Shown here: piece by piece, positions 8,470-9,135 of the stretch
Layout: each line of letters starts with the position of its first letter
Numbering within the stretch: the first letter of the stretch is position 1
NCBI GenBank assembly: GCA_003696125.1
Contig: RFHZ01000347.1
Span: 1 to 9,135 of the forward strand
Direction: 5' to 3'
Source: Nitrospinota bacterium
GTDB lineage: Bacteria; Tectomicrobia; Entotheonellia; J063
DNA: 9,135 bases
Program-made: the position numbers and the translations under genes
The notes under the pieces: model-generated
Seen by the model: the letters and a program-made list of their open reading frames with translations, nothing else
Databases searched by the model: none
What the model was told of the DNA's origin: nothing

Positions 8470-8498
8470 TTGCTCTTCTCTCCAGGTGATGCTATAAT
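8470..8498 (+). promoter_or_regulatory. Extended -10 promoter for the RHH antitoxin gene
   Basis: A perfect TATAAT (8493-8498) preceded by TGC forms an extended -10, with TTGCTC (three of six) 17 bp upstream as a weak -35. The start would be near 8505, giving a leader of about 85 nt. The 11 bases GATGCTATAAT are identical to those of the purD promoter. Toxin-antitoxin promoters are usually autoregulated by the antitoxin, but I see no clear operator palindrome beside it. Confidence 0.6.
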
Positions 8499-8590
8499 GC
8501 TGCTATAGAAGGGGTTGCCAAGGAGACGGTCCGGCGACAGGGAAAGAGCTGTCTGGCCAACCGATCAGCAAGAAGGAAGAGGTCGACGCT

Positions 8591-8893
8591 ATGACTGTTA
8601 CCCCGATGAAGCGCATTACACTTCGTGTACCCTCATCGGTACATCACGCCTTGACTCAGCTCGCTGCGAAACGGCATGTATCACTCAATACGCTGGCCCT
8701 CGAAGCCCTGCAACGCTATATTGCCCAGGAAAAACGTCGCTTTCCGTTCAAAGAACTCAGCGATGTGCTTGTCCCGGCCGCCCAGGCACAAGGTTTGACC
8801 GAGGAGGAAATACAGCACCAGATTAAAGAAATGCGGCGACGGCTCTGGCAAGAGCGGTACCAAGATATGGTTGAGGCTTCTCCCCAGAGATAA
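8591..8893 (+). CDS. Ribbon-helix-helix antitoxin (VapB/CopG-like)
   Basis: 100-aa DNA-binding antitoxin. The N-terminal ribbon KRITLRVP (residues 7-14) is followed by two helices with the RHH turn region SLNTLALEALQRY (31-43). Such dimers bind operator DNA through the beta ribbon. The C-terminal half (about 50-100) is charged and helical (GLTEEEIQHQIKEMRRRLWQ), like VapB tails that wrap around PIN toxins. I chose the ATG at 8591 because GAGG lies 8 nt upstream; an in-frame ATG at 8606 (MKRIT) is a possible shorter start. Five bases after its stop begins the PIN toxin remnant, the normal antitoxin-then-toxin order. With its toxin cut to 20 codons, this would be an orphan antitoxin, possibly kept as a regulator or as protection against related toxins. 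Confidence 0.8.
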   Translation: MTVTPMKRITLRVPSSVHHALTQLAAKRHVSLNTLALEALQRYIAQEKRRFPFKELSDVLVPAAQAQGLTEEEIQHQIKEMRRRLWQERYQDMVEASPQR

Positions 8894-8898
8894 GGTAG

Positions 8899-8961
8899 AT
8901 GACAAAGCTCCGTGTTTTCCCTGATACCGGGGCGCTGGTAGCGATGATCGTTTTTCCCTGA
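8899..8961 (+). pseudogene. Truncated PIN-domain toxin (VapC-like), first 20 codons only
   Basis: The frame starts with ATG five bases after the antitoxin stop and reads MTKLRVFPDTGALVAMIVFP, then TGA. This is the first strand and loop of a PIN ribonuclease, in which the aspartate of the (V/I)F-x-DT-x-L motif binds the catalytic metal. Asp9 is present, but the usual DTN or DTS is DTG. The rest of the fold, with the remaining acidic residues, is missing in all three frames downstream, so it cannot be a working toxin. Identification rests on 20 residues plus the position after an RHH antitoxin. The stop overlaps the next gene's ATG as TGATG. The junction probably marks a deletion or insertion near 8957. 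Confidence 0.6.
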
Positions 8962-9135
8962 TGATTGCTCAGTATCTCAGGCAGTTTGCCCATCTCCGCA
9001 CCGATGCCAGTGCAAGCCGCTGGCCGGCTGCCACCTGCCATCGCGCTCCACACAAACCCCTGCTCTTATTGGCCGTCATGGACCTCTTTGCGCAGGGCAC
9101 GATCACTTCCAATCTGATTGAACTCACTCTGGATC
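8961..9135 (+). CDS. N-terminus of a predicted HNH/McrA-like restriction endonuclease (partial)
   Basis: 58 codons are open to the right edge. The peptide contains YLRQFAHLRTD (5-15), APHKPLLLLAVMDL (29-42) and AQGTITSNLIELT (44-56). The APHKPLLLLAVxDL signature followed by a GxIxxNxIxLT strand is typical of the N-terminal domain of predicted HNH restriction endonucleases (COG3440-like). In ScoMcrA-type enzymes the comparable RAPHKPLLLL region belongs to the sulfur-binding domain that recognises phosphorothioated DNA. The nuclease part would lie beyond the window. The ATG at 8961 has no Shine-Dalgarno and overlaps the stop of the PIN fragment (TGATG), so translation may depend on coupling. 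The N-terminus appears complete for the family. The family assignment is from memory of the motif; modified-DNA specificity is inference. Confidence 0.6.
   Translation, partial: MIAQYLRQFAHLRTDASASRWPAATCHRAPHKPLLLLAVMDLFAQGTITSNLIELTLD

What the first reader, a model, noticed from the sequence alone, without database searches (positions are those of the whole stretch)
8591..9135. Toxin-antitoxin operon whose toxin has been replaced by a restriction-endonuclease gene through a TGATG junction
An intact RHH antitoxin gene is followed, at normal spacing, by only the first 20 codons of a PIN toxin. The toxin stop overlaps the ATG of an HNH/McrA-like nuclease N-terminus that lacks its own Shine-Dalgarno. 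The promoter and ribosome entry of the old toxin-antitoxin pair may now drive the nuclease, with the antitoxin possibly autoregulating it. If conserved, this would be an antitoxin-controlled restriction gene, not a simple scar.
Basis: partly seen in the sequence, partly recalled or inferred. Interest (0 to 1): 0.62.

Follow-up and report, generated by a model that had tools for sequence, protein, structure and literature searches.

The report
Toxin stub fused to nuclease start
In an uncultured bacterium the gene of a poison-antidote pair has been cut off after 20 codons and joined, stop codon to start codon, to the gene of an enzyme of the kind that destroys sulfur-marked foreign DNA; similar cut-off defence genes sit in front of relatives of this enzyme, but the antidote does not, so this looks like a reused genetic scar, not a new antidote-controlled weapon.

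Summary
The window (a whole 9,135-bp contig) ends with an intact RHH antitoxin gene (8591-8893), 20 codons of a PIN toxin (8899-8958, TGA 8959-8961) and the start (8961) of a nuclease gene that runs off the contig after 58 codons. The antitoxin's distant relatives pair with intact PIN toxins. The nuclease is the N-terminus of an SBD-HNH enzyme: full-length relatives fold as the Hga sulfur-binding domain plus HNH. Its ATG is the family's native start and has no Shine-Dalgarno, while the two older genes have one; an extended -10 promoter with a direct repeat over it lies upstream. Expression through the old operon by stop-start coupling is plausible.

The antitoxin-nuclease order is not conserved: none of about 40 relative nuclease loci has it. 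What recurs is a cut-off defence gene ending at the nuclease start: an HKD-helicase stub overlapping by 4 nt (L125) and an AAA-ATPase stub 16 nt upstream on a closed plasmid (L137). In Desulfuromonadia, 5' fragments of the same nuclease gene lie among toxin-antitoxin genes. I read the window as one recombination junction of a defence island, probably with captured expression; antitoxin control and an intact nuclease are unproven.

The parts
8490..8498 (+). Extended -10 promoter element TGCTATAAT; no good -35
   Evidence: Only TGNTATAAT on the + strand of the window. The strict two-hexamer scan does not list it.
8487..8507 (+). Direct repeat TGATGCTATA / TGCTGCTATA, 11-nt spacing, overlapping the -10: candidate RHH operator
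   Evidence: one of 4 such close repeats in 9.1 kb. Operator role is inference.
8591..8893 (+). Intact RHH antitoxin gene, 100 aa
   Evidence: good Shine-Dalgarno.
8899..8961 (+). 5' stub of a PIN toxin gene: 20 codons plus TGA
   Evidence: distant relatives of the antitoxin are followed by PIN genes.
8959..8963 (+). TGATG stop-start overlap joining the stub to the nuclease
   Evidence: Direct reading.
8961..9135 (+). 5' end (58 codons) of an SBD-HNH nuclease gene, cut by the contig end
   Evidence: 71% identity to L003 from residue 1; all 9 invariant columns kept; full-length relatives match SBD of Hga and HNH.

Best explanation
The contig end records a recombination junction inside a defence island. 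The front of a type II toxin-antitoxin operon (promoter, complete RHH antitoxin, ribosome-binding site and first 20 codons of a PIN toxin) was joined at the native start codon of an SBD-HNH nuclease gene, and the rest of the toxin was lost. The nuclease has no ribosome-binding site of its own, so it is probably translated by termination-reinitiation from the stub and transcribed from the old promoter. Its likely job is type IV restriction of phosphorothioated DNA (or, if linked to dnd genes, acting as their restriction partner). Shown: the anatomy, the native start, the missing SD, the lack of conservation of the antitoxin order, and comparable stub-nuclease junctions elsewhere. Inferred: one transcript, coupled translation, an intact nuclease beyond the contig, any repression by the orphan antitoxin.
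For: Parts and junction. Native nuclease start in L003, L004, L005 and L006. No SD at the nuclease, SDs at the antitoxin and stub. Extended -10 and repeat. SBD-HNH identity of full-length relatives. Independent stub junctions inside long contigs: L069/L125, where an HKD-helicase gene (TIGR04095 profile 2-48 of 451) stops 4 nt inside the nuclease start, and L062/L119/L137 (closed Chlorohelix plasmid), where a 112-aa AAA stub (DndD profile 1-110 of 650) stops 16 nt before it; the remainder of the cut gene is not downstream in either, because dndB follows convergently. Nuclease 5' fragments next to TA genes in L007 and L017.
Against: Only 58 codons are seen, and several relatives hold nothing but 5' fragments of this gene (L007 copies, L017, L022), so this copy may be dead. 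No second genome has this exact junction. The junction lies 175 bp from a contig end of a MAG with 8% contamination. Coupling and one transcript are untested.
Confidence: 0.58

Rival explanations
1. Dead scar: both the toxin and the nuclease are fragments left by rearrangement of a defence island; nothing downstream is made.
For: 5' fragments of this nuclease gene, ending around codon 40-60, occur among TA or phage-like genes in L007 (three copies), L017 and L022. No remainder of the gene in the assembly. Toxin certainly dead (20 codons).
Against: All 58 visible codons are open and keep the 9 invariant residues of the family, and identity to a full-length relative stays high up to the contig end (71%).
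Confidence: 0.25
2. Assembly chimera at the contig end joins two unrelated molecules.
For: Junction 175 bp from the end of a contig in a 990-contig, 8% contaminated MAG; no second genome shows the same junction.
Against: One search found no second place in the assembly that matches the contig end, and a graph-type misassembly would need a shared k-mer. The join sits exactly at a native start codon. Similar junctions exist on a closed plasmid and inside a 48.8-kb contig.
Confidence: 0.12
3. Antitoxin-controlled restriction gene as a maintained system: the orphan RHH protein represses its own promoter and sets the nuclease level.
For: Intact antitoxin, promoter with an overlapping direct repeat spaced 11 nt, no SD at the nuclease.
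Against: No such order at any relative nuclease locus; only distant homologues of the antitoxin in the roughly 800 genomes searched. That many RHH antitoxins need their toxin for strong repression is general knowledge, not tested here.
Confidence: 0.12

Closest known systems
SBD-HNH phosphorothioate-dependent restriction endonucleases (EcoWI, SprMcrA, Hga; NCBIfam NF045808)
   Same: N-terminal sulfur-binding domain and C-terminal HNH in full-length relatives.
   Different: Relatives score 127-147 bits, under the curated 180; several sit next to dnd genes, whereas linkage is reported for under 3.6% of such enzymes (PMC7461809).
RHH / PIN (TIGR00305, PIN_3) type II toxin-antitoxin operons
   Same: Antitoxin and toxin start in the usual order and spacing; distant relatives L032, L033, L035, L037, L038, L043 have the intact pair.
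   Different: The toxin is cut after 20 codons and cannot be catalytic.
Nucleases in Dnd neighbourhoods (HKD-SF2 helicase, HNH; PMC10853773)
   Same: Seven Chloroflexota loci have the nuclease (or its remnant) convergent with dndB, some with broken HKD-helicase genes upstream.
   Different: No dndD hit in the window's genome; the upstream stub is a toxin, not a Dnd restriction gene.

Membership tests
SBD-HNH PT-dependent restriction endonuclease | N-terminal sulfur-binding domain | tested here: inconclusive
   The window holds only residues 1-58; PDB SBD Hga hit E 0.06; NF045808 E 0.00085; full-length relatives match SBD clearly.
SBD-HNH PT-dependent restriction endonuclease | C-terminal HNH domain | not testable with these tools
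   Beyond the contig end; present in relatives (PF13391 E 4e-11).
SBD-HNH PT-dependent restriction endonuclease | Cleavage of phosphorothioated DNA | not testable with these tools
   Needs biochemistry.
RHH-PIN toxin-antitoxin | RHH antitoxin | tested here: met
   PF05534 above cut-off.
RHH-PIN toxin-antitoxin | PIN toxin with its catalytic acidic residues | tested here: not met
   Only 20 codons remain; no PIN continuation in any frame.
Antitoxin-controlled restriction system | Antitoxin-nuclease order conserved across genomes | tested here: not met
   Absent at the relative nuclease loci.

The most novel reading that the evidence does not exclude
SBD-HNH nuclease genes spread by replacing the 3' part of other defence genes at their own start codon, living on the promoter, ribosome-binding site and stop-start coupling of the victim's stub; in this genome the victim was a TA toxin, so the surviving antitoxin may set the nuclease level.
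Probability: 0.2. Interest if true: 0.65.

Novelty: new variant of a known kind. Interest (0 to 1): 0.36.

Why it matters
If the junction is expressed, it shows how a restriction gene without its own signals can take over the expression front end of another defence operon, and that truncated defence genes upstream of such nucleases are functional leaders, not just decay. It would also explain some orphan antitoxins.

Tried and rejected
Frameshift of an intact PIN gene: rejected, no PIN sequence in any frame after 8958. Nuclease inserted into an otherwise complete gene (remnant downstream): not seen in L062 or L069, where dndB follows at once; untestable in the window. Rest of the nuclease on another contig: none. 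Close relatives of the antitoxin on plasmids or viral contigs: none. Dnd genes in this genome: no dndD hit. Integron-like or att-like reading of the L007 repeats: considered, not supported beyond the repeats themselves. DndI as the nuclease family: rejected, it is DUF262-DUF1524 (PMC11662687). The single-sequence model of the antitoxin is too poor to use (pLDDT 60).

Full report
What is there. The window is one complete contig (C673) of a 4.2-Mb, 990-contig assembly. At its right end lie an RHH antitoxin gene (8591-8893), 20 codons that read as the start of a PIN toxin (8899-8958, TGA 8959-8961), and an ATG at 8961 that shares one base with that TGA and opens a frame to the contig end. The antitoxin passes Pfam's cut-off for HicB-type RHH. 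The stub is too short for a profile hit, but its 15-mer is the best match to six PIN N-termini among 13,125 window 15-mers, and distant relatives of the same antitoxin (L032, L033, L035, L037, L038, L043) are followed at once by intact PIN genes, of which two were tested against Pfam (PIN_3) and one against NCBIfam (TIGR00305).

The nuclease. The 58 visible residues are 71% identical, from residue 1, to a 325-aa protein of a Chloroflexi MAG (L003). They keep all nine residues that are invariant in an alignment with 15 relatives. Full-length relatives hit the NCBIfam model for phosphorothioated-DNA restriction endonucleases below its curated score, carry HNH_2, match the solved sulfur-binding domain of Hga by profile (E 3e-25) and by fold (TM 0.90 on the domain), and match HNH enzymes such as TagI in the C-terminal half. 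The ATG at 8961 corresponds to the family's native start, so the join is at the gene's own first codon.

Expression signals. Duplex energy with the 16S tail is -6.6 (antitoxin), -4.6 (stub) and +0.3 kcal/mol (nuclease; 89% of random 20-mers do as well or better). Upstream of the antitoxin is the only TGNTATAAT on the + strand, overlapped by two copies of a 10-mer spaced 11 nt, a layout that RHH repressors commonly use (general knowledge). The strict -35/-10 scan does not report it. One transcript and stop-start reinitiation are therefore plausible but inferred.

Is it conserved? No relative nuclease locus carries this antitoxin or a PIN stub upstream. Searches of roughly 800 genomes, viral contigs and plasmids gave only distant antitoxin relatives. 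Two of the four other genomes held from the phylum have only remote nuclease relatives (about 30% identity over most of the protein).

What does recur. Two other loci show a cut-off defence gene ending at the nuclease start. In L069/L125 an HKD/PLD-helicase gene stops just after its Walker A motif (TIGR04095 profile 2-48 of 451) and overlaps the nuclease ATG by 4 nt. In L062/L119/L137, a closed Chlorohelix plasmid, an AAA-ATPase stub of 112 aa (DndD profile 1-110 of 650) stops 16 nt before the nuclease. In both, dndB follows convergently and the rest of the cut gene is not there. Seven Chloroflexota loci share the nuclease-dndB convergence (L003, L119/L137, L122-L125, and L136 with a nuclease remnant), and the helicase gene upstream is also broken in L119, L123 and L124. 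HKD-helicases and HNH enzymes are known residents of Dnd neighbourhoods (PMC10853773), although dnd linkage is reported as rare for SBD-HNH enzymes (PMC7461809). In Desulfuromonadia the 5' end of the same gene is itself scattered: L007 has one full gene and three fragments of about 100-125 bp, 85-93% identical, among TA genes; L017 and L022 have single fragments next to a likely TA pair and a BRO gene. Two tight junctions besides the window are too few for a statistical claim; I report them as a pattern to test.

Verdict. The window shows a recombination junction in which the front of a TA operon was joined to a restriction nuclease gene. Capture of expression signals is the likeliest reading if the nuclease is intact; a dead scar is the main rival, and the contig end prevents a decision. 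Control by the orphan antitoxin is possible but rests on the promoter layout alone.

Noticed in passing
L007 3986-4128, 5093-5205, 5964-6076, 7859-7984: Four copies of the first 100-130 bp of the SBD-HNH gene (one in the full gene) at 85-93% DNA identity, interspersed with a PIN toxin gene, a DUF4143 ATPase and an addiction-module antidote gene.
   Followed up: partly
L003, L119/L137, L122-L125, L136: SBD-HNH nuclease gene convergent with dndB in seven Chloroflexota loci, with broken HKD-helicase genes upstream in several; such coexistence is reported as rare (PMC7461809).
   Followed up: partly
L085 563-961 and 952-1881: A VapC-like PIN gene overlaps the start of another HNH-domain protein gene by 10 nt: an intact toxin in front of a nuclease.
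   Followed up: no
L122, L124, L136 upstream of the nuclease: Short tandem repeats (for example KAFARPAKAFARP or ACTPAWIACPP when translated) directly upstream of the nuclease gene or its remnant.
   Followed up: no
G003:C1:1119066-1121039 (L056): Strong dndD match (549 bits) with 3 TGA and 4 TAG inside, in a class relative of the window's genome; decayed gene or sequencing errors.
   Followed up: no
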